DNA of 64,000 nucleotides from Brevundimonas sp. SORGH_AS_0993 (GCF_030818545.1 NZ_JAUTAH010000001.1:2609001-2673000), one strand, 5' to 3'; positions 2,556 through 63,955 are shown, counted from the stretch's first letter. Program-made: numbers and translations. The notes: generated by a model not told the origin, from the sequence alone.

Positions 2556-2638
2556 GTGAAGAGTGTCAGTGAGCAAGGGGTGAGCGTTCGCACGCCGTCC
2601 GTGTTGCCGCTCACCCCTTGCTCACTACCACTATTCAC
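2556..2638. repeat. Palindromic intergenic repeat, family A copy 1
   Basis: Two 30-base arms at 2556-2585 and 2609-2638 are almost perfect inverted complements (GTGAAGAGTG... and ...CACTATTCAC) around a 23-base loop. The core of the left arm is AGTGAGCAAGGGGTGAGC. The same arms recur at 3736-3820 and 61292-61368, with a relic at 31626-31670, so this is a dispersed repeat and not just a terminator. It lies between the antiporter and nuclease genes. Confidence 0.85.
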
Positions 2639-3711: not shown

Positions 3712-3735
3712 TTTCGGCCTTGGTGAGCGGTGGGG

Positions 3736-3820
3736 GTGAATAGTGCTAGTGAGCGAGGGGTGAGCGGGCCGTGCGCGCATCGACGCCTCGGCTCACCTCT
3801 TGCTCACTAGCACGCCTCAC
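3736..3820. repeat. Palindromic intergenic repeat, family A copy 2
   Basis: Arms at 3736-3765 and 3791-3820 read GTGAATAGTGCTAGTGAGC... and ...GCTCACTAGCACGCCTCAC, with a 25-base loop unlike that of copy 1. Arms are conserved, loops are not. It ends 14 bases before the next start codon, so a hairpin in the 5' leader of the methyltransferase mRNA is expected if transcription reads through. Confidence 0.85.
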
Positions 3821-3834
3821 CTATAGCAGCGCCA

Positions 3835-35452: not shown

Positions 35453-35562
35453 GAGTGGCGGGTGACGAGTGGCGAGTGGCGAGTTCTCGGCGTTGGCCGA
35501 GCGACCGGCCGGTGAACAGCGGAACTGACCCGAGCGCCCTCGCCACTCGTCACTCGCCACTG
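35453..35562. repeat. Family B palindrome between fliI and fliJ
   Basis: Left arm 35453-35483 (GAGTGGCGGGTGACGAGTGG...) and right arm 35539-35562 (CTCGCCACTCGTCACTCGCC...) with a 55-base loop. The right arm forms the last four codons and stop of fliI (HSGE then TGA on the minus strand). Confidence 0.85.
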
Positions 35563-36899
35563 TGGATCATGCCCTGGTTCAGGATGGCCTCCAGCCGAAC
35601 GAAGGAGTCTTCCAGACGGGTCGCATCGTCCTTGTCCTGCCCCAGGAAATCCTCCAGCGCGGGGTTCAGGGCGATGGCCCGGTCCACGATGGGGTCGGCG
35701 CCGGTCCGGTAGGCGCCGATCTTGATCAGCTCTTCCATATTGGCATAGGCCGACAGGCACTGGCGGGCGCGCTTGTTCAGGTCGCGCTCGGGCGGTGTCT
35801 GACAGGCGGGCATGGTCCGGCTGACGGACTTCAGCACGTCGATGGCGGGAAAGCGCCCGCGCTCGGCGATCTTGCGGTCCATGACGATATGGCCGTCCAG
35901 AATGCCTCGAACGGCGTCGGCGATCGGCTCGTCATGGTCGCCGCCGTCCACCAGAACGGTGAACAGGGCGGTGATGGGGGCCGCCGTCGTGCCGTCCGGC
36001 CGGATCGGCCCCGGCCCGGCCCGCTCCAGCAGCTTGGGCAGTTCGGTGAAGACGGTGGGGGTGTAGCCCTTGGTGGTCGGGGGCTCCCCGGCGGCCAGGC
36101 CGATCTCGCGCTGGGCCATCGCAAACCGGGTGACGCTGTCCATCAGGCACAGCACCTCCAGGTCCTGGTCGCGCAGATATTCGGCGATGGCCATGGTCAT
36201 ATAGGCCGACTGGCGGCGCTTCAGGGCCGGTTCGTCACTGGTGGCGACCACGACGACGGCGCGTTTCAGCCCCTCTTCGCCCAGGGTCTCTTCGACGAAC
36301 TCGCGCACCTCGCGGCCCCGTTCGCCGATCAGGCCGACCACCACGGCATCACAGGTGGCTTGCTTGGCCAGCATGGACAGCAGCACCGACTTGCCCACGC
36401 CCGATCCGGCGAAGATGCCCAGGCGCTGGCCCCGGCAGGTGGTGGTGAAGACGTCCATGGCCCGCACGCCCAGGTCCAGACGCTCGCCGACCCGGCCGCG
36501 CGAATGGGCCGGGGGTGGGGGCGCGCGCAGAGGGTAGGGGGCGGGGCCTTGCGGCAGCGGTCCCTTGCCGTCGATCGGCTGGCCGAAGGCGTCGATGATC
36601 CGGCCCAGCCAGGCGGTGGTGGGGCGCACGCTGGCGGCCTGGTCGATGATGCGGATGTCGGCGCCGGGGGCCACGCCCTCGACCGGACCGAAGGGCATCA
36701 GCAGGGCCTTGGAGTCGCGGAAACCGACGACCTCGGCCGGCAGGGGATCGTGGCCGCGCCGCCCGATCTCGGCCCGCGCCCCGACCGCCAGACGCGACAG
36801 GCCGCCGCGCGATTCGATCAGCAGGCCCGACACGCCCGCCACCTTGCCGGTGACGACCAGCGGGTCGATCGCTTCGACGGCGGCGACGAGATTACGCAA
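35550..36899 (-). CDS. fliI: Flagellum-specific ATPase FliI
   Basis: A 449-residue type III secretion ATPase. Walker A is [12 protein letters not shown] (about 163-174); the Walker B region is [45 protein letters not shown] and [22 protein letters not shown] are family hallmarks. It forms the cytoplasmic hexamer that helps feed flagellar subunits into the export gate. The last residues HSGE are encoded by the family B palindrome. Two GTTAACCAC motifs lie upstream (CtrA-type), consistent with cell-cycle control of early flagellar genes. Confidence 0.95.
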
Positions 36900-50038: not shown

Positions 50039-51964
50039 TCACCCCGCCAGGGCCGCCTTCTTCTCTTCCAGTTCGAGCCATTCCATCTCGGCGGAGTCCA
50101 GCTCGGCGCGGGCCTTTTCGGCGGCCTTCATGGCGACGTCGAAAGCCTTGGGGTCGCGGGCGTAGAGGTCGGGGTCGGCCAGGGTCGCGTCGTGTCTGGC
50201 GATGACGCCAGGCAGGGTCTCGATCAGTTTCTCGACTTCCTCCAGGCGGCGGGCGTCCTTGTAGGAGAGTTTGGGGGTCTTCTTTTGAGTGGCGAGGGTC
50301 CTTTCCGCGCCAGACGTGTCCTCCGCCTTCTTCTTCTCGCCGCTGGCCACTCGGGACTCGCCGCTCAGGAAGCCCGGATTCTGGCGCAGGAAGTCGGTCC
50401 AGCCGCCGGGGGTCTCCACGATGTCGCCGCGCCCGTTCAGGGCCAGGGTGGAGGTCGCCAGACGGTCGATGAAGTCGCGGTCGTGGGAGACCAGGATCAG
50501 GGTGCCGTCATAACCCTCCAGCAGCTCTTCCAGCTTGTCCAGCGTATCCATGTCCAGGTCGTTGGTCGGTTCGTCCAGGATCAGCAGATTGGCCGGCTTC
50601 GCCAGGGCGCGGGCCAGCAGCAGACGGTTGCGCTCGCCCCCCGATAAGGTCGAGATCGGCTGGCGCAGCTGGGCCTCGGAAAAGAGGAACTCCTTGGCGT
50701 AGGCGGCGACGTGTTTGGACACGCCGCGCACCAGGATCGAGTCCCCGCCGCCCGGCGTCAGGGCGTCCCACAGGGTCATGTCCGACTTCAGCCCCGCGCG
50801 CGACTGGTCCAGATAGACCGGCTCCAGATTGGCGCCCAGGCGCACCGTGCCCTCGTCGGGCGCCAGTTCGCCCAGCAAGGTCTTGACCAGGGTGGTCTTG
50901 CCCGCCCCGTTGGGTCCGACGATGCCCAGACGGTCGCCGCGCATGATGCGGGTGGTCAGGTTCCTGAACAGGGTGCGGCGGGAAGGAAGTGGCGAGTGGC
51001 GAGTGACGAGTGACGAGGGGGATGGGGCGAGGGTCGGGGTCTCGGCGCCGGCTTCACTCGCCACTCGCGCCTCGCCGCTCGCCACTGTGTCGAACCCCTT
51101 CGACACCCCCTTGATCTCGGCGACCAGCTTGCCGGAGGCGGCGCCGGAATCGACGCCCAGGGACAGTTCGCGCGGGACGTCCTTCATCTTCTCGGCGCGT
51201 TCGGCGCGCAGGGCCTGGAGGGAGCGGGCGCGGCCCTCGTTGCGGCTGCGGCGGGCGGTGATGGAGGAGTAGAAGGTGGCCGTCTCGCGCTCGATGGTCT
51301 TGGTCAGGCGGCGCAGGGATTCGGCCTCTTCCTCCAGCGTCTTGGCGGCCCAGTCGTCGAAGTCGACGAAGCCCTTGTTCAGGGTGCGGACGCGGCGGCC
51401 CTCCAGCCAGTGGACGGTGTCGGTGACGCGGTTCAGGAAGGCGCGGTCGTGGCTGACGACCAGAAGCGCGAACCGGGCCGAGATCAGCTCGGTCTCCAGA
51501 AGCTCGATGGCCAGGATGTCGAGGTGATTGGTCGGTTCGTCCAGCAGCAGCAGGTCGGGCTCCTCGGCGAAAGCCTTGGCCAGGGCCGCGCGCCGGGTCT
51601 CGCCGCCCGACAGCCCTTGCGTGGACTTGGCGGGGTCGAGGCCGAAGGTGGTCAGCCAGGACTCGGCGGTCCAGGGCTCGGCCTCGCCGGAGGCGGCGTA
51701 GTCCAACAGGGTGTCGCCGACGATCAGCGGCTCCTGCGGCACATAGGCGAAACGGGTGGCGGACTGGACCGAGCGGTCGCCGCTGTCGGGCTCGATCAGG
51801 CCCATGACCACCTTCATCAGGGTGGACTTGCCCGCCCCGTTCCGGCCCACCAGGGCGGCGCGGCTGCGTGGTTCGACGGCCAGATCGACGCCGTCGAAGA
51901 GGGGGCGCTGGCCATCCTGAAGGCGGACGTCCTTGAGCGCGACGAGAGGGGGTCTGGCTGCCAT
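50039..51964 (-). CDS. uup: ABC-F ATPase (Uup-like) carrying two in-frame palindromic insertions
   Basis: A protein of about 641 residues (an ATG at 51973 would add 3). Two ABC domains: the first has Walker A GRNGAGKSTLM (about 40) and LSGGETRRAAL; the second has VGPNGAGKTTLVKTLLG (about 345) and LSGGERNRLLLARAL; a C-terminal coiled segment follows. There are no membrane helices, as in ABC-F proteins that act on ribosomes or DNA. Residues about 293-325 (GEARVASEAG... SSLVTRHSPL) and 532-559 (SGESRVASGE...) come from family B palindromes inserted in frame: one in the loop just before the second Walker A strand, one in the linker to the C-terminal coil. Confidence 0.9.
   Translation of the reverse strand: MAARPPLVALKDVRLQDGQRPLFDGVDLAVEPRSRAALVGRNGAGKSTLMKVVMGLIEPDSGDRSVQSATRFAYVPQEPLIVGDTLLDYAASGEAEPWTAESWLTTFGLDPAKSTQGLSGGETRRAALAKAFAEEPDLLLLDEPTNHLDILAIELLETELISARFALLVVSHDRAFLNRVTDTVHWLEGRRVRTLNKGFVDFDDWAAKTLEEEAESLRRLTKTIERETATFYSSITARRSRNEGRARSLQALRAERAEKMKDVPRELSLGVDSGAASGKLVAEIKGVSKGFDTVASGEARVASEAGAETPTLAPSPSSLVTRHSPLPSRRTLFRNLTTRIMRGDRLGIVGPNGAGKTTLVKTLLGELAPDEGTVRLGANLEPVYLDQSRAGLKSDMTLWDALTPGGGDSILVRGVSKHVAAYAKEFLFSEAQLRQPISTLSGGERNRLLLARALAKPANLLILDEPTNDLDMDTLDKLEELLEGYDGTLILVSHDRDFIDRLATSTLALNGRGDIVETPGGWTDFLRQNPGFLSGESRVASGEKKKAEDTSGAERTLATQKKTPKLSYKDARRLEEVEKLIETLPGVIARHDATLADPDLYARDPKAFDVAMKAAEKARAELDSAEMEWLELEEKKAALAG
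50287..50367. repeat. Family B palindrome inside the ABC-F gene (C-terminal linker)
   Basis: 81 bases, 27 codons. Left arm GAGTGGCGAGGGTCC...; right arm CTCGCCGCTGGCCACTCGGG... Arms are degenerate but recognisable. The reading frame of the host gene stays open (SGESRVASGE ... ERTLATQKKT). Confidence 0.75.
50988..51086. repeat. Family B palindrome inside the ABC-F gene (before domain 2)
   Basis: 99 bases, 33 codons. Left arm AGTGGCGAGTGGCGAGTGAC... (50988-51017), right arm CACTCGCCACTCGCGCC... (51055-51086). In frame with the host gene. Confidence 0.85.
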
Positions 51965-52041
51965 CGCGGCCATATAGAGGAGGGGCCGGCGATCCGCCAC
52001 GATCTTGGACGAAACGCCCCATCGGTAACTGAAAATTTCAG

Positions 52042-54483
52042 ATGTGCGGCTTCTATTGTCCCATGCCCCAGATGCGCGCCCATGTCCCTCTGCGAGAATC
52101 CCGCCAGACATCGGACCTGGCCAGCCCGTTCGACCGCCTGACCCATCTGGCCTGCAACATCTTCTGCACGCCGCACGCCATGGTGTCGATCGTCGATGGG
52201 GAGCGGACGGAGTTCCATTGTCACACCGGCCCGGGCCGCGACGCCCTGCCGTGCGAGATGACGCTCAGCCCCGAGATGATGGCCCAGGGGGCCGACGCCG
52301 TGATGATGGTCGAGGACGGCCGGACGGATCCGCGCACCCGGGACCATCCGATGGTGGTGGGGCCGCCCTATCTGCGCTTCTTCGCCGGGGTGACGATCGT
52401 GGATCGGTTCGACCGGGCGGTCGGCGCCATCGGGGTGATGGACAGCCGGCCGCGCAAGGCCCTGTCGCAGCGCGAGGTCGAGACGCTGCGGATGCTGGGG
52501 CGGATGGCGTCGGAAGTCTTCGCCCAGGCGGATTCGGTCAGGCGTCAGAGCGAACAGCTGGAGCTGATGCGGCTGACCGAGGAATTGGCGGGCGTCGGCC
52601 AGTGGCGGGTCGACGTGAAGACGCGCCGGATCCTCTGGAGCGACGAAATCTATCGCATCTTCGGCCTGGATCGGGCGACCTTCCACCCGACGGTGGACGA
52701 GATCCTGACTCTATACGTCGAAGAGGATCGGGGCGTTCTGGAAGCGGCGTTGGGGCGCTGCCTGAACGAGGGCGTCGGCTACAAGCTGCGGTCGCGCGTG
52801 CGTCGGGCCGATGGCGAAATCCGCGTGCTGGAGGCCCAGGCCGACTGCGAGCGCGGACCCGATGGCGAGGGCGCCGCGGTGTTCGGCGTCCTGCGCGACG
52901 TCACCGACGAGGAAGATTCCAAGAAACAGTTGGCCGAAAGCGAGGACCGCTATCGCCTCCTGGCCGACCGATCCAGCGACCTGGTGCTGTGCCACAGGGT
53001 GGACGGAACCCTGACCTATGTATCGCCGTCCATCGCTCGGTTCGGGATGAAGCGCGAAGAGGTGGTGGGGCAGTCGCTGCTGAAGTTCGTGCATCCCGAC
53101 GACCGGCCGCTGCTGCTGAATCACCTGGTGGTCTATCTGACCAGCGGGGCGAAGGGCGACATGCCGCCCGTGCGCTTCCGCGCCCAGAGGCCCGACGGGT
53201 CGGTGCTGTGGGTCGAAAGCCGCGTCTCCAGCATCCGCGACGCCGACGGACGGGTGGTCGAGTTCCAGAACCAGTGCCGGGACGTGACCGAGACCAAGGG
53301 GCTGGAAGACGCCCTGACGCAGGCGCGGGACCGGGCCGAGGCCGCATCGCGCGCCAAGTCGGAGTTCCTGGCCAACATGAGCCACGAGCTGCGCACCCCC
53401 CTGACCAGCGTGATCGGCTTCGCCGGCCTGTTGAACGACAGCGCCGAACTGGGACCCAGGGACCGCGACCGGGTGCGGAAGATCGCGGCGGCCAGCGAGA
53501 GCCTTCTGGCGGTCATCAACGACATTCTGGACTATTCCAAGCTGGAGGCGGGGGCGGTGCGGCTGGACCCCCAGCCGTTCCGCCCGCGCGACCTGGCCGA
53601 GACCACGGCCGGAATCGTCGAGGGCCAGTGCGAGGCCAAGGGGCTGAGCCTGCGTGTCGAGGTCGATCCGGCCGTGCCCGAGGCGCTGAACGGCGACGCG
53701 GGACGCCTGCGACAGGTGACGCTGAACTTCCTGTCCAACGCGGTGAAGTTCACGGCCGAGGGAGAGGTGGCGCTGCACCTGAGCCTGGCGGAGGGACGGC
53801 TGAGGATCGCCGTGCGCGACAGCGGCATCGGCCTGACGCCCGAAGTGGCTGAGACCCTGTTCGACCGATTCATGCAGGCCGACGCCTCGACCACGCGCCA
53901 GTACGGCGGGACCGGCCTGGGTCTGGCGATCAGCCGGCGGCTGGCCGAGGTGATGGGCGGCGCGGTCGGGGTGGACAGCAAGATGGGCGAAGGCTCGGTC
54001 TTCTGGATCGAGGTTCCGCTGGAGATCGCCGATCCGGCGGCCGTGGACGTGGAGGCGCCCGAGGCGGCGCAAGGGCCGACCGGCGCCCTGCGGGTGTTGA
54101 TGGCCGACGACGTGGCGGCCAATCGCGAGCTGATGACCGCGATCATGGAGAGCCTGGGCGTCAACCTGGAGACGGCGACGGACGGGGTCGAGGCGGTCGC
54201 GGCCGCTAAGACCGGTCTTTACGACCTGATCCTTATGGACCTGCACATGCCCAATATGGACGGGCTGGAAGCGTCGCGGCGCATCCGGGCCATGGAGGGC
54301 CGGGTGGGACGCACGCCGATCGTCGCCCTGACGGCCAATGTCCAGCCCGATCAGATCGAAGCCTGTCGCGCGGCGGGGATGGACGCCCACGTCGGCAAGC
54401 CGATCCGCCCGACCGAGCTGCTGACCGCCATCAATGCGGTCATGGCGGCCCGACCCGTTGAGACGGACGCCGCCGCGGCGTAA
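52042..54483 (+). CDS. Hybrid sensor histidine kinase GAF-PAS-PAS-HisKA-HATPase-REC
   Basis: An 813-residue cytoplasmic protein; ATGs at 52063 and 52072 are alternative starts. GAF domain (about 25-170, FDRLTHLACNIFCTPHAMVSIVDGERTEF), two PAS domains (about 180-290 and 300-420), HisKA (EFLANMSHELRTPLTSVIGF), HATPase (NFLSNAVKFTAEG, GTGLGLAISRR) and a receiver (VLMADDVAANREL ... LILMDLHMPNMDG). Divergent from the ABC-F gene and 9 bases before the YcgN-like gene. The signal and cognate regulator are unknown. Confidence 0.9.
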   Translation: MCGFYCPMPQMRAHVPLRESRQTSDLASPFDRLTHLACNIFCTPHAMVSIVDGERTEFHCHTGPGRDALPCEMTLSPEMMAQGADAVMMVEDGRTDPRTRDHPMVVGPPYLRFFAGVTIVDRFDRAVGAIGVMDSRPRKALSQREVETLRMLGRMASEVFAQADSVRRQSEQLELMRLTEELAGVGQWRVDVKTRRILWSDEIYRIFGLDRATFHPTVDEILTLYVEEDRGVLEAALGRCLNEGVGYKLRSRVRRADGEIRVLEAQADCERGPDGEGAAVFGVLRDVTDEEDSKKQLAESEDRYRLLADRSSDLVLCHRVDGTLTYVSPSIARFGMKREEVVGQSLLKFVHPDDRPLLLNHLVVYLTSGAKGDMPPVRFRAQRPDGSVLWVESRVSSIRDADGRVVEFQNQCRDVTETKGLEDALTQARDRAEAASRAKSEFLANMSHELRTPLTSVIGFAGLLNDSAELGPRDRDRVRKIAAASESLLAVINDILDYSKLEAGAVRLDPQPFRPRDLAETTAGIVEGQCEAKGLSLRVEVDPAVPEALNGDAGRLRQVTLNFLSNAVKFTAEGEVALHLSLAEGRLRIAVRDSGIGLTPEVAETLFDRFMQADASTTRQYGGTGLGLAISRRLAEVMGGAVGVDSKMGEGSVFWIEVPLEIADPAAVDVEAPEAAQGPTGALRVLMADDVAANRELMTAIMESLGVNLETATDGVEAVAAAKTGLYDLILMDLHMPNMDGLEASRRIRAMEGRVGRTPIVALTANVQPDQIEACRAAGMDAHVGKPIRPTELLTAINAVMAARPVETDAAAA

Positions 54484-56675: not shown

Positions 56676-57860
56676 ATGGTTTCGATCCGATGGCCGTTCG
56701 GCCAGGCGGGGCGCATGCGCGCGCCCTCATCCGCGCCCGAGGCGAAGGAGAGCCGGGCGGGCGGGGTGATCGCCCTGTCGGGCGTGGGGCGGCCGCGTTG
56801 GACGCCCAACGACTACGCCAGCCTGGCGCGCGAGGGGTATCAGAAGAACGCCGTCGCCTATCGCTGCATCCGCATGATCGCGGAGGCGGCGGCCTCCGCC
56901 CCGTTCGCGGTGTTCGTGAAGGGGGCGCGCGACGACGATCATCCGCTGGCGAAACTGATCCGCAAACCCAATCCCGAGCAGTCGGGCGCCGAGCTGATGG
57001 AGGCGGTCTATGGCGCGCTGCAGGTGTCGGGCAACGCCTATGTCGAGGCGACCGGAGACGGCGACGGCGACGGGGCGCCGGACGAGCTGTGGGCCCTGCG
57101 GTCGGACCGGGTGAAGGTGGTCCCTGGCCGGTCGGGATGGCCCGAGGCGTGGGATTACTCCGTGGACGGACGGTCGGTGCGGATCGGGCGGGCGGCCGAC
57201 GGCTGGGCGCCGGTGATGCACCTGAAACTGTGGCATCCGCTGGACGACTGGTACGGGCTGTCGCCGCTGGAGGCGGCGGCGCAAGGGGTGGACGCGCACA
57301 ATGCGGCCGGCGCCTGGAACAAGGCCCTCTTGGACAATGCGGCGCGGCCGTCGGGGGCGCTGATTTACGGGGCGCGGAACGGCGAGCGGCTGACGGACGG
57401 GCAGTTCGAGGCGCTAAAAGACCAACTTTCGGGTGTCTACGCCGGGGCGACGAACGCCGGGCGGCCGATCCTGCTGGAAGGCGGAATGGACTGGAAGCCG
57501 CTGAGCCTGACGCCGGCGGAGATGGATTTCACGATGGGCAAACACGCGGCGGCGCGCGAGATCGCCCTGGCCTTCGGGGTTCCGCCGCAGCTGCTGGGGA
57601 TCCCCGGCGACGCGACCTACGCCAACTACCGAGAGGCGAACGCGGCCTTCTGGCGCCAGACGGTGATCCCGCTGGTCAGGAAGGCGGCCGGGGCGATGAC
57701 GGGCTGGCTGGGCGAGCGGTTCGCCGGATGCGAGATCCGGGCGGACCTGGATGCGGTCTCGGCCCTGCAGCCCGAGCGCGACGCCCTGTGGGCGCGGCTG
57801 GAGGCGGCGAGCTTTCTGACGGACGAGGAACGCCGGCGGATGGCGGGGCTGGGAAGTTGA
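56676..57860 (+). CDS. HK97-family portal protein (GTA gp3)
   Basis: A 394-residue portal protein. YQKNAVAYRCIRMIAEAAASAPFAV, GNAYVEAT, LWHPLDDWYGLSPLEAAAQ, HNAAGAWNKALLDNAARPSGAL and LLGIPGDATYANYREANAAFW are standard HK97 portal segments. It forms the dodecameric ring through which DNA enters. ATG 56676 follows GGAGAAGACG; a GTG at 56664 is possible. The stop TGA is the edge of a family B palindrome. Confidence 0.95.
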   Translation: MVSIRWPFGQAGRMRAPSSAPEAKESRAGGVIALSGVGRPRWTPNDYASLAREGYQKNAVAYRCIRMIAEAAASAPFAVFVKGARDDDHPLAKLIRKPNPEQSGAELMEAVYGALQVSGNAYVEATGDGDGDGAPDELWALRSDRVKVVPGRSGWPEAWDYSVDGRSVRIGRAADGWAPVMHLKLWHPLDDWYGLSPLEAAAQGVDAHNAAGAWNKALLDNAARPSGALIYGARNGERLTDGQFEALKDQLSGVYAGATNAGRPILLEGGMDWKPLSLTPAEMDFTMGKHAAAREIALAFGVPPQLLGIPGDATYANYREANAAFWRQTVIPLVRKAAGAMTGWLGERFAGCEIRADLDAVSALQPERDALWARLEAASFLTDEERRRMAGLGS

Positions 57861-57949
57861 GTGGCGAGTGGTCAGTGGCGAGAAGATGATGGGGGAGGGC
57901 GGCGCGGACACCTCGCCACTCGCCACACGTCACTCGCCACTCGCCACTC
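57859..57949. repeat. Family B palindrome after the portal gene
   Basis: Left arm 57859-57882 (GAGTGGCGAGTGGTCAGTGG...) and right arm 57912-57949 with several CGCCACT units. It carries the portal stop codon at its left edge and ends 13 bases before the next ATG. Confidence 0.85.
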
Positions 57950-57962
57950 CAGGGAGGCGACA

Positions 57963-58193
57963 ATGACCGAACATCAAATCCGGCGCGTGCCGACGGCGCT
58001 GTTGATCGCTGTCGTGGTGCAGACGGTGGGCGGCCTGGTCTGGGCCGGGGGCGCGGCGGCGCGGATCGCGACGCTGGAGCAGCGGGTCGGGGAACAGAGG
58101 CTGGTCGCCGAACGGCTGGCGCGGCTTGAGGTTCAGGGCGAGGCGACGGCGGCGGCCGTGGAGCGGATCGAGCGGCGGTTGGAGGGGGAATGA
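57963..58193 (+). CDS. GTA gp3.5-like small membrane protein
   Basis: A 76-residue protein: one transmembrane helix (TALLIAVVVQTVGGLVWAGGAA) followed by a coiled-coil tail (RIATLEQRVGEQRLVAERLARLEVQGEATAAAVERIERRLEGE). Occupies the place of ORFg3.5 between portal and protease in GTA clusters. Overlaps the protease gene by 4 bases (ATGA, 58190-58193). A GGGAGG ribosome site precedes ATG 57963. Role unknown. Confidence 0.75.
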   Translation: MTEHQIRRVPTALLIAVVVQTVGGLVWAGGAAARIATLEQRVGEQRLVAERLARLEVQGEATAAAVERIERRLEGE

Positions 58194-58672
58194 GTGGCGA
58201 GTGGCGAGTGACGAGTGACGAGAAGGAAGGGTCAGGGCGGCGCGGCTCGCCACTGACCACTCGCCACTCGCCACTCCTTATAGAAGGCTACGCCTCGCTG
58301 TGGGGCGTGGCGGACCTGAACGGGGACGTGGTGCAGGCGGGGGCGTTCGCCGACAGCCTGGCGCGGACGGGAGCCGAAGGGGTGCGGATGCTGAACCAGC
58401 ACGACGCGCGGGCGCCGGTCGGGGTCTGGGAGCAGATCGTCGAGGATGCGTGCGGCCTGTTCGTCCGTGGGCGGATCGAAGACTGGTCGGCCGAGGCGCG
58501 GTTCGCCGGGGCGTTGAGCCGGGCGGGGGCGCTGGACGGGCTGTCGATCGGATACCGCACGGCGCGGGCCCGACGTCAGGGACGCTTAAGGGTGCTGAGC
58601 GCGGTCGAGCTGTGGGAGGTGTCGCTGGTGACGTTCCCGATGCTGCCGGGGGCGCGGTTCAGTTTGGCTTGA
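58190..58672 (+). CDS. HK97-family prohead protease (GTA gp4) with palindrome-encoded N-terminus
   Basis: A 160-residue protein. The protease fold starts at IEGYASLWGVADLNGDVV (about residue 31); catalytic His in MLNQHDAR and Ser in GLSIGYR are visible, followed by ELWEVSLVTFPML. Residues 1-29 (MSGEWRVTSDEKEG...TRHSPL) are encoded entirely by a family B palindrome (58192-58276), which also provides the codons right after the start codon. It matures the capsid by cleaving scaffold segments. Overlaps the convergent minus-strand gene by 14 bases. Confidence 0.9.
   Translation: MSGEWRVTSDEKEGSGRRGSPLTTRHSPLLIEGYASLWGVADLNGDVVQAGAFADSLARTGAEGVRMLNQHDARAPVGVWEQIVEDACGLFVRGRIEDWSAEARFAGALSRAGALDGLSIGYRTARARRQGRLRVLSAVELWEVSLVTFPMLPGARFSLA
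58192..58276. repeat. Family B palindrome forming the protease N-terminus
   Basis: Arms at 58192-58222 and 58246-58276, each 31 bases and nearly perfect complements. This is the best-preserved copy and a good reference for the consensus: five units of AGTGGCG/AGTGACG per arm. Confidence 0.9.
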
Positions 58673-59477
58673 GGGCCTGGAAGGCGCCGTTGCGGTCGAG
58701 GGTTTCGGCGAGGGCGGCCATCTGGGCGCGGCCCTTCTTGCCGTGGAGATAGCGCAAGGCCCAGCCGGCGAGCACCAGGCCGAAGATCCAGCCGACGTGC
58801 AGGACGAGGTGGGCGAACAGGATGAAGACGGCCGCCAGCGCATAGGCGCCGAGATAGACCAGGGCCAGCTGGCCGCCGCGCGAGGCGGTGGGGTTGGACA
58901 GGCCGGCGATCATCTCGGCCAGGTCCGGCGAGGCGGCGGCGGACGGCAGGGCGTGATCGGAGGGCTTGGACTCGGTCCGGGGCGAGGGCTTCGTCTGAGC
59001 CTTCGGTACGGATTGCGCGGGGACCGCAGCGGCCGGTCGGGCGGCGGGCTTCGATCTGGGCGCGACGGGTTCGACGGGCTGACGGGCGGGGCGGTAGAGG
59101 ATGGACTGACCGCGTTCGTCGACGATGAAGACCTCTTCGAAAGCGGTGGTGGAGAAGTCGATGGCGCGGGTGTCTTGGCCGTAGCTTTGGCCATGCAAGA
59201 CCGTCAGACGGCCCTGGCGCAGTTCGACCTGGAAGCCGACCGGATCGCGCAGGTCGCCGACCATGGCGTGGACCGTGCCGAACAGGCCGGTGGCGTCCGG
59301 ATTGGCGGCCGGACGGTTCGCATCGACGACCATCTGCGAATAGAGGCCCGCGCCCGTGTTGCGGCGCAGGCCCGGCGAGCTGGCGGCGACCTGGGCGGCC
59401 AGATCGGGCACGCGGTCGCCCATCTGCCAGACCAGGGCGTCCATGACGGCGCTTTCGAGGGGCGTCAGATGGGACAT
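58659..59477 (-). CDS. Membrane-associated hypothetical protein inserted in the GTA cluster
   Basis: A 272-residue protein on the opposite strand to the GTA genes. The N-terminal part (about 1-125, HLTPLESAVMDALVWQMGDRVPDLAAQVAASS ... FSTTAFEEVFIVDERGQSILYRP) is soluble; a Pro/Ala/Lys linker (about 130-180) leads to two membrane helices near the C-terminus (LALVYLGAYALAAVFILFAHLVL, GWIFGLVLAGWALRYL). Not recognised. It lies 6 bases before another minus-strand gene, so they form a two-gene insert between protease and capsid. Confidence 0.65.
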   Translation of the reverse strand: MSHLTPLESAVMDALVWQMGDRVPDLAAQVAASSPGLRRNTGAGLYSQMVVDANRPAANPDATGLFGTVHAMVGDLRDPVGFQVELRQGRLTVLHGQSYGQDTRAIDFSTTAFEEVFIVDERGQSILYRPARQPVEPVAPRSKPAARPAAAVPAQSVPKAQTKPSPRTESKPSDHALPSAAASPDLAEMIAGLSNPTASRGGQLALVYLGAYALAAVFILFAHLVLHVGWIFGLVLAGWALRYLHGKKGRAQMAALAETLDRNGAFQALKPN

Positions 59478-59483
59478 CAGATG

Positions 59484-59867
59484 TCAGTCCGTTTGGGCGC
59501 CCGCCGTCTTCTCCATCTCGGCCTTGAGCGCCTGCATTTCGGTGGAGATGGCTTCGATCTCGGCGGTGCATTGCTCCTGCGTGATCGTCGCTGCCCGTTC
59601 TGACGCCTTGCCCTTGTCGTAGGCCGCCAGAAGGAAGGCCGAAGCCGCCCGCTTCTGAGGGTCGCTTTCGTTCGCCATGGCCGCTCGCACCTGCGCGCCG
59701 ACTTCGGGCGGGAACTGACGCTCGCAGGTTCCCAAGGTCTCGAACATTCGGGTCATGCCGCTGAAGATCTGACTGACTTGCGCCGCCTGTTCGGGAGGCA
59801 GTCGGGAGACATCAGGTTGCGACTGAACCAGAAGCGCGCCGGAAAGGGCCAGGACGAGCGTGAGCAT
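59484..59867 (-). CDS. Exported hypothetical protein inserted in the GTA cluster
   Basis: A 127-residue protein with a signal peptide (MLTLVLALSGALLVQSQ) and a helical mature part with two Cys (TCERQFPPE, EQCTAEIEAIS), probably disulfide-linked in the periplasm. The start at 59867 gives the signal; the frame is open further to 59930. First gene of the minus-strand pair. Function unknown; not a known GTA gene. Confidence 0.6.
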   Translation of the reverse strand: MLTLVLALSGALLVQSQPDVSRLPPEQAAQVSQIFSGMTRMFETLGTCERQFPPEVGAQVRAAMANESDPQKRAASAFLLAAYDKGKASERAATITQEQCTAEIEAISTEMQALKAEMEKTAGAQTD

Positions 59868-59994
59868 GTGAGACGATCCCTGAAAGAGCAGGATCGGTAG
59901 CACGGTTTCGCGGGCCTGCCAGCCGTTCAATCACAGGTTTCGGGCGCGGGCCCGGATCGTCGCGTCTGACGAAGACGCATTCACCGGAGAGACC

Positions 59995-61233
59995 ATGAAA
60001 GAGACCAAACAGGCGTCGGGGCAACCCGAGGCGGGCGTCGTCGTGCGCGAGATGATGGCGGCGTTCGAGGCGTTCAAAGGGGCGAACGACGCCCGGCTGG
60101 ACCAGATCGAGAAGAAGGCGGCGGCCGACGTGCTGCTGGAGGAGAAGGTGGCGCGCATCGACCAGGCGGTCGCGGCGGCCCAGGCGCGGCTGGATCGGGT
60201 GATGAGCCAGGCGCGGCGTCCGGCCCTGGGCGGCGAACCGGCCCAGCCCGTGTCGGCGCCCGAGGCCAAGGCGGCCTGGGACGGCTATCTGAAGACGGGC
60301 CAGGCCCCGCACGCGACGGCTGGCCTGGAGGTCAAGGCCGGTCTGTCCAGCGGCGCGACCTCGGGCGGCTATGTCGTGCCCTACGAGACCGAGCGGGCCA
60401 TCGAGCGGCGGCTGATGACGGTGTCGCCGATGCGCGAGATCGCCACGGTGCGGACGGTGGCGGCGGGGGTGTTCAAGAAGCCCGTCTCCACCGCGGGGGT
60501 GACGGCTGGCTGGGTGGCCGAGACGGCCGCGCGACCCGAGACCGACCCGGCGACACTGGCCCTGCTGGAGTTTCCGTCGGCCGACCTCTACGCCAATCCG
60601 GCGGCGACCCAGGCCCTGCTGGACGACGCCATGATCGACCTCGACGAATGGCTGGCGGCCGAGGTGGAGGACGCCTTCGCGGCGCAGGAGACCCAGGCCT
60701 TCGTCAACGGCGACGGGACGAACAAGCCGCGCGGCTTCCTGACCTATCCGACGGTGGCGGACGCCAGCCAGGCGTGGGGGCAGATCGGCTATGTCGCATC
60801 GGGCGCGGCGGGCGGTTTCGCGGCCAGCAATCCGACCGACAGGCTGATCGACCTGGTCTATGCGCCCAAGGCCCAGTACCGGCCGAACGGACGGTTCGTG
60901 ATGAACCGGCGCACGGTCTCGGCGGTGCGAAAGTTCAAGGACGCGGACGGCAACTACATCTGGCAGCCGCCGGCGCGCCTGGGCGAGACGGCGTCCCTGC
61001 TGGGCTATCCGGTCACGGAGATCGAGACCCTGCCGGACGTGGCGGCCAACAGCCTGTCCATCGCGTTCGGGGATTTCCAGCGCGGCTATCTGATCGTGGA
61101 CCGGGCCGGTGTGCGGGTGCTGCGCGACCCGTTCACGGCCAAACCCTATGTGCTGTTCTACACCACCAAACGGGTCGGCGGCGGGGTGCAGAATTTCGAC
61201 GCCATCAAGGTGATGAAGTTCGCGGCCGCCTGA
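59995..61233 (+). CDS. HK97-family major capsid protein (GTA gp5)
   Basis: A 412-residue protein. Residues 1-100 are a coiled-coil scaffold (delta) domain rich in Lys/Glu; the capsid core starts at about 110 (GLEVKAGLSSGATSGGYVVPYE), with FVNGDGTNKPRGFL, NRRTVSAVRKFKD and LLGYPVTEIETLPDV typical of HK97 folds. The protease upstream would remove the scaffold. GTA particles of this type package random host DNA. Confidence 0.95.
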   Translation: MKETKQASGQPEAGVVVREMMAAFEAFKGANDARLDQIEKKAAADVLLEEKVARIDQAVAAAQARLDRVMSQARRPALGGEPAQPVSAPEAKAAWDGYLKTGQAPHATAGLEVKAGLSSGATSGGYVVPYETERAIERRLMTVSPMREIATVRTVAAGVFKKPVSTAGVTAGWVAETAARPETDPATLALLEFPSADLYANPAATQALLDDAMIDLDEWLAAEVEDAFAAQETQAFVNGDGTNKPRGFLTYPTVADASQAWGQIGYVASGAAGGFAASNPTDRLIDLVYAPKAQYRPNGRFVMNRRTVSAVRKFKDADGNYIWQPPARLGETASLLGYPVTEIETLPDVAANSLSIAFGDFQRGYLIVDRAGVRVLRDPFTAKPYVLFYTTKRVGGGVQNFDAIKVMKFAAA

Positions 61234-61240
61234 CGGCGGC

Positions 61241-61287
61241 AGTGACGAGTGGTCAGTGGCGAGCGGCGAGGGGTCGCTCGCCGCTGG
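61241..61287. repeat. Truncated family B palindrome after the capsid gene
   Basis: Left arm AGTGACGAGTGGTCAGTGGCG (61241-61270) is intact; the right arm is only CTCGCCGCTGG (61277-61287). It stops 5 bases before a family A palindrome. Confidence 0.75.
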
Positions 61288-61291
61288 TCGC

Positions 61292-61368
61292 GTGAAGAGT
61301 GCTGGTGAGCAAGAGGTGAGCGCTTCGTTCGCGGGTCGCTCACCCCTAGGCGCACGAGCGCCTTTCAC
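61292..61368. repeat. Family A palindrome, copy 3
   Basis: Left arm 61292-61321 (GTGAAGAGTGCTGGTGAGC...) is close to copies 1 and 2; the right arm 61338-61368 is partly decayed. Directly follows a family B element. Confidence 0.8.
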
Positions 61369-61391
61369 TTTCCAGGACATGGAGGTGAGAC

Positions 61392-61658
61392 ATGGCGCAG
61401 CCGGTGACGGTGGCGGAGGCGAAGCTGTTTCTGCGCGTGGGCCACGCGCAAGAGGATGGACTGATCCAGACCTTGATCGAGGCGGCGCAGGCCCGGGTGG
61501 AGGCGGATGCGGGCCTGAGCCTGACATCGACCGCGCCCGCGCCGCTGAGGCTGGCGATCCTGATGCTGACGCTGGCCGCCTATGAGCGGGGCGAGGCGGC
61601 GATGGCGACCACGTCGGTCGATGCCTGGGTGGCGCCCTATCGGGTGGTGCGGCTGTGA
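61392..61658 (+). CDS. GTA gp6-like head-tail connector
   Basis: An 88-residue helical protein (VTVAEAKLFLRVGHAQEDGLIQTLIEAAQARVEADAG) of the phage gp6/connector family (putative phiE125 gp8-like). Forms the first adaptor ring below the portal. GGAGGTGAGAC precedes ATG 61392. Overlaps the next gene by 4 bases (GTGA). Confidence 0.85.
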   Translation: MAQPVTVAEAKLFLRVGHAQEDGLIQTLIEAAQARVEADAGLSLTSTAPAPLRLAILMLTLAAYERGEAAMATTSVDAWVAPYRVVRL

Positions 61659-61963
61659 GCGGGGCGATGCGGATGCTGGCGGGCCTGTACCGGCCTGTCG
61701 AGAGCCAGACCCCCTATGGCGGGCGCAGCGTGACGTTCGAGGCGACGGGGTCGGCCTGGCTGGCGTGCGGCGCGCGAAGGCGGGCCGAACGCGGCGAGGG
61801 CGACGAACGCCGCGCGGTCGAGACGATGAGCGCCGAGACACGGGACGATCCGCGCCTGGAGACGGGGCGGGTGCTGCGTTTCGGCGGGGCGGACTGGCGG
61901 ATCGTGACGCTCGGACCGCTGAGGCCCGGCCGGGTCGCGCTGGAGTTGGAGCGGACGCGATGA
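61655..61963 (+). CDS. GTA gp7-like head-tail adaptor
   Basis: A 102-residue beta-rich protein (GLYRPVESQTPYGGRSVTFEATGSAWLACGARR ... RVLRFGGADWRIVTLGPLRP) matching the phage head-tail joining/adaptor family. The start is GTG 61655 overlapping the previous stop. Coupled also to the next gene by ATGA at 61960. Confidence 0.82.
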   Translation: MSGAMRMLAGLYRPVESQTPYGGRSVTFEATGSAWLACGARRRAERGEGDERRAVETMSAETRDDPRLETGRVLRFGGADWRIVTLGPLRPGRVALELERTR

Positions 61964-62370
61964 GAGATCATGAGAGCGCGCTGCAGAAGGCGTTGCTGGC
62001 GCGGCTGAAGGCCGATCCGGCGTTGGACGCCCTGTTGGACGGGCGGATTTTCGACCAGGCGCCGGAGGGGGCGGAGACGCCCTATCTGGTCCTGGGCCGG
62101 TGCGAGAGCCGGCCGGTGGCGGCCGCCGATTGCGGCGTGGAGCAGCGGCTGACGCTGACCGCCGTGTCGCGCTTCGCCGGGACGGAAGAGGCCAAGGCCG
62201 TAGCCGCCGCCGTGCGCGCCTGTCTGGAGGCGGCCACGCTGGAGGCCGACGGGGTGCGGACGGCGACCCTGAGGACCGTCTTCAGCGATGTGTTCCGGGC
62301 AGGCGACGGGCGCCGGACCTATGGGGTCGTGCGGCTGAGGGCTGTGACTGAGGACGTGGCGAGTGGTTAG
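61960..62370 (+). CDS. GTA gp8-like DUF3168 tail-completion protein
   Basis: A 136-residue protein (SALQKALLARLKADPALDALLDGRIFDQAPEGAETPYLVLGRCESRP ... LTAVSRFAGTEEAKAVAAAV) of the DUF3168 tail terminator family. The last residues VASG and the stop codon are encoded by the start of a family B palindrome. Confidence 0.85.
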   Translation: MRDHESALQKALLARLKADPALDALLDGRIFDQAPEGAETPYLVLGRCESRPVAAADCGVEQRLTLTAVSRFAGTEEAKAVAAAVRACLEAATLEADGVRTATLRTVFSDVFRAGDGRRTYGVVRLRAVTEDVASG

Positions 62371-62465
62371 TGGCGAGTGGCGAGTTGGGTCCGGGGGCGG
62401 ACGTATCGGGATGAACCGTTGCGACGACTTTCCTCGCCACTCGTCACTCGTCACACGCCACTCAC
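62356..62465. repeat. Family B palindrome between gp8-like and tail-protein genes
   Basis: Left arm 62356-62384, right arm 62433-62465, loop 48 bases. Supplies the end of the DUF3168 gene. Confidence 0.85.
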
Positions 62466-62483
62466 GAGCAAAGCGAGGACGAA

Positions 62484-62894
62484 ATGACCGCACAGGCGGG
62501 CAAGGACATATTGCTGAAGATCGAGGGGGCGCCGGAGGTGTACGCCACGGTGGCGGGCCTGAGGGCGCGGACCATTTCGCTGAACGCGCGGACGGTGGAG
62601 GCGACGGACGGCGACAGCGCCGGGCGGTGGCGCGAACTGCTGGCCGGGGCTGGGGTGAAGTCGGCGGCCGTGTCGGGGCAGGGGATTTTCCGCGACGCGG
62701 CGTCCGACGCCCTGGTACGCGAAGCCTTCTTCGACCAGGCGGCCAAACGCTGGCGGCTGATCGTGCCGGACTTCGGCGTTCTGGAGGGGCCGTTCCTGGT
62801 CGCGGCGCTGGAATACGCCGGGACGCACGAGGGCGAGGCGACCTTCGCCCTGAGCCTGGCCAGCGCCGGGGCGATCGGGTTCAGCGCGACATGA
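62484..62894 (+). CDS. Major tail protein, TP901-1 type (GTA gp9)
   Basis: A 136-residue protein (AQAGKDILLKIEGAPEVYATVAGLRARTISLNARTVEATDGDSAGRWRELLAG) with the typical phage tail-tube start and beta-rich body. Forms the tail tube. Overlaps the next gene by ATGA (62891-62894). GAGGACGAA precedes the ATG. Confidence 0.92.
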   Translation: MTAQAGKDILLKIEGAPEVYATVAGLRARTISLNARTVEATDGDSAGRWRELLAGAGVKSAAVSGQGIFRDAASDALVREAFFDQAAKRWRLIVPDFGVLEGPFLVAALEYAGTHEGEATFALSLASAGAIGFSAT

Positions 62895-63178
62895 TCGGCG
62901 CCAATGGGGCGCGGGGCGAGGTGATGGCGTGCCTGGGCGGGACGCCGCGTCGGCTGTGTCTGACCCTGGGGGCGCTGGCGGAGATCGAGACGGGACTGGG
63001 GGTCGAGGGGCTGGCGGCGACGGCCGAGCGGATGAAGGCCCTGTCGGCGCGCGACCTGATGGTGGTGCTGGCGGCCCTGCTGCGCGGCGGCGGAGAGACG
63101 GCGCCGGACGTGGCGGCGGTCGATCCGCGCGCGGCGGCCCAGGCCGTGGCGCGGGCCTTTGCGGCGGTCGCCGCATGA
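62891..63178 (+). CDS. GTA gp10-like tail assembly protein
   Basis: A 95-residue protein (GEVMACLGGTPRRLCLTLGALAEIETGLGVEGLAATAERMKALSARDLMVVLAALLRGGG) of the GTA gp10 / tail tube GTA-gp10-like family. Coupled on both sides by ATGA-type overlaps. Probably works with the next small protein as a tail chaperone pair. Confidence 0.88.
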   Translation: MIGANGARGEVMACLGGTPRRLCLTLGALAEIETGLGVEGLAATAERMKALSARDLMVVLAALLRGGGETAPDVAAVDPRAAAQAVARAFAAVAA

Positions 63179-63351
63179 CCCCCTGGGGGGAGATGCTGCG
63201 GACGGCCGCCCTGCTGGGCGTGGCGCCCGATGCCTTCTGGCGGCTGTCGCTGAAGGAATGGCGGATGCTGACCCAGACGCCGGGCGCGGCGACGCCGATG
63301 GGGCGCAAGACCTTGGCGCAACTGATGGAGGAGTGGCCCGATGGCGGGTGA
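63175..63351 (+). CDS. GTA tail assembly chaperone (rcc01693-like)
   Basis: A 58-residue protein (WGEMLRTAALLGVAPDAFWRLSLKEWRML) typical of the small phage tail assembly chaperone family that follows gp10 in GTAs. Overlaps gp10 (ATGA) and the tape measure gene (11 bases). Confidence 0.88.
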   Translation: MTPWGEMLRTAALLGVAPDAFWRLSLKEWRMLTQTPGAATPMGRKTLAQLMEEWPDGG

Positions 63352-63868
63352 GGACGAACGGCTGGACGCCGTGCCGATCAAGGCGGCCGAGGCGGCCGCC
63401 GCGCTGGAAGCGCTGAAGGCGCCGGCGCAGGAGGCGGCGAGCGCCATCGAGGACGCCTTCGGGCGCGCGGGCGACAGCCTGACCCGGTCGCTGGCGCGGG
63501 CGGCGGCGGACGGGGAGGTGACGCTGGCCGAACTGGCGCGGGCGGTGCTGAACGCCGTCAACTCTGCGGCCGGGACGGGCGCGGGATCGAACGGGGGGCT
63601 GAGCGGCGCGATCCAGGCGGCCCTGTCCAGCTTCGGCGGGGCGCGGGCGGACGGCGGGCCGGTGCTGGGCGGCGGCGCCTATCTGGTCGGCGAACGCGGG
63701 CCCGAGGTGTTTCGCCCGACGACGGGCGGCGAGATCGGACCCGCGAGCGGCGGAGCGGTGACGGTCAATGTGACGCTGGAGGGCGGGACACAGGCCCTGC
63801 TCCGCTCCGAGGCCCAGATCGCCCAGATGCTGGCGCGGGCGGTCAGCCTGGGCGCGCGGAGGATGTGA
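63341..63868 (+). CDS. Short tail tape measure protein (GTA gp11)
   Basis: A 175-residue protein: helical N-terminal half (AAALEALKAPAQEAASAIEDAFGRAGDSLTRSLARAA), a Gly/Ala-rich middle, then GGPVLGGGAYLVGERGPEVFRP, a motif found at the end of many tape measure proteins, and a C-terminal helix. Its short length suits the very short GTA tail. A family B palindrome follows directly. Confidence 0.88.
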   Translation: MAGEDERLDAVPIKAAEAAAALEALKAPAQEAASAIEDAFGRAGDSLTRSLARAAADGEVTLAELARAVLNAVNSAAGTGAGSNGGLSGAIQAALSSFGGARADGGPVLGGGAYLVGERGPEVFRPTTGGEIGPASGGAVTVNVTLEGGTQALLRSEAQIAQMLARAVSLGARRM

Positions 63869-63870
63869 CC

Positions 63871-63955
63871 GGCGAGTGGCGAGTGGTTAGTGACGAGTGG
63901 CGAGCGACGATGCGATGCGGCTTGTCTCGCCACGGATCACTCGTCACTCGCCGCT
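63871..63955. repeat. Family B palindrome after the tape measure gene
   Basis: Left arm 63871-63910 (GGCGAGTGGCGAGTGGTTAG...), right arm 63926-63955. It begins two bases after the tape measure stop codon. Confidence 0.85.

What the first reader, a model, noticed from the sequence alone, without database searches (positions are those of the whole stretch)
57859..63955. A palindromic mini-element family (B) with an open reading frame through both arms
Copies at 35453, 50287, 50988, 57859, 58192, 61241 (shortened), 62356 and 63871 share arms built of 5-6 base units AGTGGCG / AGTGACG and a variable loop of about 7-55 bases. On either strand one frame is open through both arms: SGEWRV.. on entry and LVTRHSPL.. 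on exit, while other frames of the arm contain TGA. So an insertion can either add about 30 residues or supply a stop codon. Protein-inserting palindromic elements are known from Rickettsia; I know of no described family with this sequence in Caulobacterales.
Basis: partly seen in the sequence, partly recalled or inferred. Interest (0 to 1): 0.8.

Follow-up and report, generated by a model that had tools for sequence, protein, structure and literature searches.

The report
Seven-base palindromes paired with helix-bundle gene
The palindromes in this Brevundimonas window are real mobile mini-elements whose arms are tandem 7-base repeats, and the same repeats frame a single small helix-bundle gene (the "23S rRNA intervening sequence protein" family, function unknown) elsewhere in the genome, which suggests a little-studied two-part system that also inserts peptides into proteins.

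Summary
Copies occur at all the listed places (50287 is weak), and about 23 genome-wide. The arms are tandem heptamers (AGTGRCG; typically four), not 5-6 base units. Close relatives lack copies at 50988, 57860 and 58192, while flanking DNA is 86-95% identical, so these are insertions. In-frame insertion is shown in an ABC-F ATPase (36 extra residues against four empty orthologues) and at the prohead protease N-terminus, and is likely in MutL and ThiC.

What lies behind them is more interesting. The genome's only PF05635 gene (23S_rRNA_IVP, "four helix bundle protein") sits between two such arms. Across 131 Brevundimonas genomes, 101 of 108 testable IVP genes lie between inverted arms, almost all with period 7. 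The heptamer tracks the IVP tree (16 changes against 80 shuffled). Genomes holding an IVP of one type carry dispersed repeats of that type (five types, p about 1e-7 or lower, uncorrected for phylogeny). IVP is under purifying selection.

Best reading: non-autonomous mini-elements with IVP as trans-acting partner, REPIN/RAYT-like in logic but without Y1 transposase or reverse transcriptase. IVP binding and the transfer chemistry are inferred. I found no paper linking heptamer repeats to IVP genes.

The parts
35454..35561 (.). B mini-element, intergenic, next to a FliI/EscN-type ATPase gene (35550-36899, minus)
50039..52111 (-). ABC-F ATPase (Uup/ribosomal-protection-like) gene carrying two in-frame elements
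   Evidence: Pfam ABC_tran x2 and ABC_tran_CTD, NCBIfam ribo_prot_ABC_F 483 bits
50287..50362 (.). weak, degenerate B element inside the ABC-F gene, in frame (..FLSGESRVASGEKKK..RTLATQ..)
   Evidence: no empty site tested
50988..51086 (.). B mini-element in frame in the ABC-F gene: SKGF-[about 36 aa]-RTLF here against SKGF-NG-RTLF in G128, G016, G024 and G039; G004 has its own in-frame version
57860..57948 (.). B mini-element at the portal / small gene junction; G016 and G039 have only the ATGA stop-start overlap
58190..58672 (+). HK97-type prohead protease (Peptidase_S78) whose N-terminal residues are the element (MSGEWRV...RHSPLLIEGYASLW); L051 has MSTLAIEGYASLW
58192..58275 (.). B mini-element at the protease N-terminus; site empty in G016 and L051; GTGAATC-type element at the same site in L047, L050, L054
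61241..61290 (.). shortened B element after the capsid gene
61294..61360 (.). family A palindrome (AGTGCTGGTGAGCAAGAGGTGAGC) abutting the shortened B copy
62356..62462 (.). B mini-element between tail-completion (gp17) and tail-tube genes; supplies the TAG stop of the upstream gene; site empty in L046, other element types in L045, L047, L051, L052
63871..63955 (.). B mini-element after the 63341-63868 gene
2556..2638 (.). family A palindrome; same system, because A-type arms flank a distinct IVP clade in nine related genomes
3735..3821 (.). family A palindrome

Best explanation
Family B is a set of miniature, non-autonomous mobile palindromes. Each arm is an array of about four 7-nt units (AGTGRCG). 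SHOWN: the copies are insertions, some in frame within proteins. The genome's single IVP gene (PF05635, four-helix bundle) lies between two arms of the same heptamer, in translational overlap (ATGA ... ATGA) between an agmatine-deiminase-type and a CN-hydrolase gene. Across the genus each IVP clade has its own heptamer, with nearly always one gene per type per genome, and genomes with a given type also hold dispersed minis of that type. IVP is under purifying selection. INFERRED: IVP is the trans-acting partner. It recognises the heptamer arrays (direct sequence readout by its oligomer; its homologue Avd acts with a reverse transcriptase in diversity-generating retroelements) and presents the hairpin-forming strand to host enzymes that insert it at new places. 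Insertions persist where they are harmless: short intergenic gaps, stop/start overlaps, and in frame in protein linkers. The AGTGGCG unit is stop-free on both strands in all frames, which suits it to that last case. How strands are cut and joined is unknown.
For: IVP gene between arms, the only IVP in the genome. 101/108 IVP loci have inverted arms above the best of 110 random controls, and 98/105 have best internal period 7. Heptamer class on the IVP tree: 16 changes (minimum 13) against 80 shuffled; nearest IVP in another genome shares the class in 102/108, while same-genome IVPs share it in 2/57. Resident IVP type predicts dispersed repeats of that type after subtracting the IVP locus itself: medians A 4, B 22.5, C 10, E 14, I 4 against 0; p 3e-9, 6e-8, 4e-12, 1e-7, 5e-14. 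dN/dS well below 1 (e.g. 0.026/0.196). Empty sites. In-frame insertion. Heptamer arms round IVP genes in other Alphaproteobacteria, some other Pseudomonadota, Nostoc, Anabaena, Calothrix, Riemerella and Azospirillum.
Against: No binding or mobility was shown. IVP has no known nuclease or polymerase motif. Thirteen of 63 IVP-less genomes still hold at least four B hits, and their copies are no more decayed than in B-IVP genomes, so present-day dependence on IVP is not shown. The B-type IVP sits at one conserved site in 11 of 12 genomes, so the IVP element itself is hardly mobile. Association tests are not corrected for phylogeny. Outside the genus the arms are less regular: 8/20 of one sample pass the same score, and some have 8-nt units.
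Confidence: 0.58

Rival explanations
1. IVP is cargo: heptamer palindromes arise and spread by replication slippage and template switching, or by an unrecognised host activity, and IVP genes are carried between arms without acting on them.
For: IVP has no catalytic motif; minis persist in IVP-less genomes and are no more decayed there; no clear target-site duplication or transposase was found.
Against: Near-universal framing of IVP genes by arms, clade-specific heptamers, type-matched dispersed copies for five types, purifying selection on IVP.
Confidence: 0.25
2. REPINs moved by a RAYT (Y1 tyrosine transposase).
For: Same logic: inverted doublets, single master gene, type matching (PMC3116915).
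Against: No Y1_Tnp match in the closed genome, while five control genomes ring. Arms are heptamer arrays rather than GTAG-tagged REPs.
Confidence: 0.03
3. Retroelement minis copied by a resident reverse transcriptase with IVP as an Avd-like helper.
For: IVP matches bAvd and DGR-Avd models weakly.
Against: No RVT_1 match in G000; RT presence is not associated with IVP in the genus (18/68 with IVP, 17/63 without).
Confidence: 0.07
4. The hairpins are kept as RNA signals (terminators, mRNA-stabilising or RNase III sites) in the GTA operon and are not mobile.
For: Large palindromes of different families recur at the same GTA junctions, e.g. after the capsid gene.
Against: Empty orthologues at 86-95% flank identity, in-frame copies inside coding genes, and arms no more complementary to their own partner than to other copies' arms (0.805 against 0.808).
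Confidence: 0.07

Closest known systems
REPIN/RAYT systems (PMC3116915)
   Same: Dispersed inverted doublets, usually one master gene per type per genome, type-specific pairing of gene and repeat
   Different: Partner is a four-helix-bundle IVP, not a Y1 transposase; arms are tandem heptamers; loops variable; in-frame insertion in proteins
23S rRNA intervening sequences with S23/IVP ORF (e.g. Coxiella IVS, PMC4990558)
   Same: IVP ORF between inverted arms; the Coxiella stem is 28 bp, the length of four heptamers
   Different: Here the elements lie in intergenic or coding DNA; none of 20 IVP loci sampled across the phylum matches an rRNA family; dispersed minis accompany them
G-rich heptamer repeats: GGGAATC in Xanthomonas, GGGGA(C/T)T in Nostoc (PMC4692102); STRRs of cyanobacteria
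   Same: 7-nt tandem arrays, often in inverted pairs in Xanthomonas (70-75 cases), mostly intergenic
   Different: Described as simple repeats not generally associated with mobile elements; no IVP link was made in the passages read
Rickettsia palindromic elements (RPE; reviewed in PMC10969869)
   Same: Palindromic, about 100-150 nt, inserted in frame in unrelated protein genes
   Different: No sequence relation tested; no IVP partner reported; here only a minority of copies is intragenic
CIR of Caulobacter (CcrM-associated; cited in PMC10969869)
   Same: Intergenic repeats in Caulobacterales
   Different: B arms hold no GANTC site; B copies are also intragenic

Membership tests
REPIN/RAYT | RAYT (Y1 transposase) gene in the genome | tested here: not met
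   PF01797 no match in G000; rings in control genomes
REPIN/RAYT | Inverted doublet of a short repeat, many copies, polymorphic between relatives | tested here: met
REPIN/RAYT | GTAG/CGTC-type tetranucleotide-tagged REP | tested here: not met
   arms are AGTGRCG arrays
IVS / IVP elements | IVP (PF05635) ORF between inverted arms | tested here: met
   one copy in G000; 101/108 in the genus. The minis themselves lack the ORF
IVS / IVP elements | location in 23S rRNA, excised by RNase III | tested here: not met
   window copies lie in the GTA cluster; no Rfam match in 20 IVP loci of the phylum or in window 34000-64000; excision not testable
MITE derived from an IS | terminal repeats of a transposase-bearing element in the genome | tested here: inconclusive
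   the related long element carries IVP and no transposase; not all transposase families were searched
MITE derived from an IS | fixed-length target-site duplication | tested here: inconclusive
   TGA/ATGA occurs on both sides at stop-start overlaps but is explicable by selection; none seen at 50988 or 58192
Rickettsia palindromic element | in-frame insertion in protein genes | tested here: met
   ABC-F against empty orthologues; MutL and ThiC by domain layout
Rickettsia palindromic element | sequence of an RPE family | not tested
   no RPE sequences were compared
CIR of Caulobacter | GANTC methylation sites in the repeat | tested here: not met
   0 GANTC in arms of 17 copies

The most novel reading that the evidence does not exclude
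IVP/four-helix-bundle proteins are the dedicated, sequence-specific mobility factors of a phylum-spanning class of heptamer-armed palindromes that move without any known transposase, recombinase or resident reverse transcriptase. The G-rich heptamer repeats of Xanthomonas, Nostoc and other bacteria, and the IVSs of 23S rRNA, would be parts of this one system.
Probability: 0.35. Interest if true: 0.92.

Novelty: new variant of a known kind. Interest (0 to 1): 0.8.

Why it matters
It joins three loose ends: heptamer repeats of unknown origin, the S23/IVP protein family whose function has stayed unclear, and palindromes that insert peptides into proteins. If right, it gives IVP a testable job (reading a clade-specific 7-base code), a simple rule to find the elements in any genome, and a possible new route of DNA mobility. 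It also shows an ABC-F ATPase and a prohead protease, and probably MutL and ThiC, acquiring inserts of about 30-65 residues from such elements.

Tried and rejected
RAYT partner: no Y1 transposase. Resident RT: none in G000 and no association in the genus. Known RNA family: no Rfam match in window 34000-64000 or in 20 IVP loci. Phage carriage: no IVP in the phage collection; the capsid region matches phages only distantly. Pairing under selection in the minis: no excess complementarity within copies. Decay of B copies after loss of B-IVP: no difference (median perfect fraction 0.49 against 0.53). CIR/CcrM repeats: no GANTC in the arms. The reversed-pattern control is uninformative for the E and I patterns, because it rings along with them: reversed AGGGATT and GGGTGTG are rotations of themselves. 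Literature searches found no paper linking IVP to heptamer repeats; only open-licence PMC papers were searched.

Full report
Setting. The window is G000:C1:2609001-2673000 of a closed 2.99 Mb genome grouped with 130 others of its genus. GTA-locus matches and record titles place it in Brevundimonas. The right part holds a phage-like/GTA cluster: portal, prohead protease, HK97 capsid, connector, tail completion, tail tube.

Observation. Each element is an inverted pair of heptamer arrays, about 30 nt per arm (usually four units plus AG), with a variable loop. The 21-mer (AGTGGCG)3 with up to 3 mismatches occurs 25 times in the window against 0.01 expected. Genome-wide the degenerate pattern with up to 2 mismatches gives 76 hits in about 22 places and none for the reversed control; with the weak 50287 copy that is about 23 places. 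Nine of these lie in 30 kb of the GTA cluster.

Reading frame. A unit of 7 is coprime to 3, so every frame of a perfect array reads the same heptapeptide: SGEWRVA, or RHSPLAT on the other strand. Of 12 heptamers tested only AGTGGCG and GGGTGTG are stop-free on both strands; AGTGACG brings TGA.

Insertions. At 57860, G016 and G039 have the bare ATGA stop-start overlap; at 58192, G016 has ATGAGCGCACTGGCC; at 50988, G128, G016, G024 and G039 lack the element. Flanks are 86-95% identical. L046 is empty at 62356 while other relatives hold different palindromes there. The same junctions therefore receive different families in different species.

In-frame cases. The ABC-F protein reads SKGF-DTVASGEARVASEAGAETPTLAPSPSSLVTRHSPLPSR-RTLF against SKGF-NG-RTLF in four relatives; G004 has its own in-frame variant. 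The prohead protease starts MSGEWRV..RHSPLLIEGYASLW against MSTLAIEGYASLW in L051. Elsewhere an element lies in frame in the MutL linker between DNA_mis_repair and MutL_C, and in ThiC; empty orthologues were not fetched for these two.

The long relative. At G000:C1:2518075-2518503 the arms enclose a gene of 131 codons, MSGEWRVASGEVRHYRDLLVWQK..., PF05635 E=5.7e-39. It is the genome's only PF05635 match. It starts at ATGA overlapping the stop of a PAD_porph (agmatine-deiminase-type) gene and ends at ATGA overlapping the start of a CN_hydrolase gene whose first residues are the 3' arm ([16 protein letters not shown]). The only strong solved relative is XCC0516 of Xanthomonas (2gsc). bAvd and DGR-Avd models match weakly.

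Genus survey. 68 of 131 genomes hold IVP. I fetched 110 loci. With the same scan, 101 of 108 testable loci have inverted arms above the best of 110 random controls; 98 of the 105 above the control's 95% level have best period 7. The remainder are mostly family A, the other palindrome family of this window. Units include AGTGGCG, AGTGAGC, AGTGAGT, AGTGGTT, GTGAATC, AGGCAGT, AGGGAGT, AGGGATT, AGGTTCT, AGGGCTT, GGGTGTG and AGGGTCG. On the IVP tree the classes need 16 changes (minimum 13; 80 shuffled). The AGG-type classes form one well-supported group of 61 rows (100/97); the AGTG-type classes lie outside it.

Master gene and minis. Same-genome IVPs share a class in 2 of 57 pairs; the nearest IVP in another genome shares it in 102 of 108. 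Subtracting the IVP locus, genomes with type A, B, C, E or I hold medians of 4, 22.5, 10, 14 and 4 further hits of that pattern against 0 elsewhere. These tests do not correct for shared ancestry. IVP dN/dS is low (e.g. 0.026/0.196, 0.004/0.532).

Beyond the genus. Heptamer arms flank IVP genes in other Alphaproteobacteria and in plasmids of Nostoc, Anabaena, Calothrix, Riemerella and Azospirillum; a few have 8-nt units. In a further sample, mainly from other classes of the phylum, 8 of 20 pass the arm score and others show heptamers by eye. AGGCAGT-armed IVPs of another alphaproteobacterial family mostly find their nearest Brevundimonas relatives among AGGCAGT or AGGGAGT IVPs.

Mechanism. No Y1 transposase and no RT are present in G000. 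The arms of a mini are no more complementary to each other than to arms of other copies, so what is kept is the heptamer sequence rather than pairing. This favours recognition of the array by a protein, and IVP is the obvious candidate; that step is inference.

Known relatives. Rehm et al. describe G-rich heptamers in Xanthomonas and Nostoc, in Xanthomonas often as inverted pairs, and report no general association with mobile elements (PMC4692102). IVSs with S23/IVP are known in 23S rRNA and have been called selfish, with mobility speculated (PMC4990558). REPIN/RAYT supplies the logic (PMC3116915), RPE the in-frame behaviour (PMC10969869). I found no paper that joins heptamer repeats to IVP, in open-licence PMC only.

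Noticed in passing
window 34000-64000 and G000:C1:2674379: Nine of about 23 B copies lie in 30 kb of the GTA cluster (about 1% of the genome); GTA junctions in relatives are also rich in palindromes of several families. Cause unknown.
   Followed up: partly
L045, L052, L055, L068, L102, L106, L107 at the prohead protease N-terminus: Another, non-heptamer palindrome family (CTCCCC...GGGGAG, about 100-190 nt) is inserted at the same place, often in an open frame with the protease.
   Followed up: no
L037 (G000:C1:1659240-1659395): A family A palindrome nested in the loop of a family B element; hit positions suggest the same nesting in G016, G022 and G024.
   Followed up: no
window 61353-61390 and 62463-62483: Sequences after element B at different sites share a tail like GAGCAAAGCGAGG before the next start codon (also in relatives), perhaps part of the element and a ribosome-binding site.
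   Followed up: no
aguA/aguB-type junction, L125-L134, L142, L154, L158 and others: The same junction hosts IVP elements with different heptamers (A, N, B, G types) in different species.
   Followed up: partly
L086, L099, L104: Records titled Pseudanabaena biceps, Bordetella and Porphyrobacter carry Brevundimonas-like GTA clusters, probably contamination or misbinning.
   Followed up: no
L267, L271, L246: IVP genes with 8-nt rather than 7-nt arm units (Gemmatirosa, Picosynechococcus, an alphaproteobacterium).
   Followed up: no
L271, L264: Four-helix-bundle genes sit inside CRISPR-cas operons on cyanobacterial plasmids, probably as harmless intergenic insertions.
   Followed up: no
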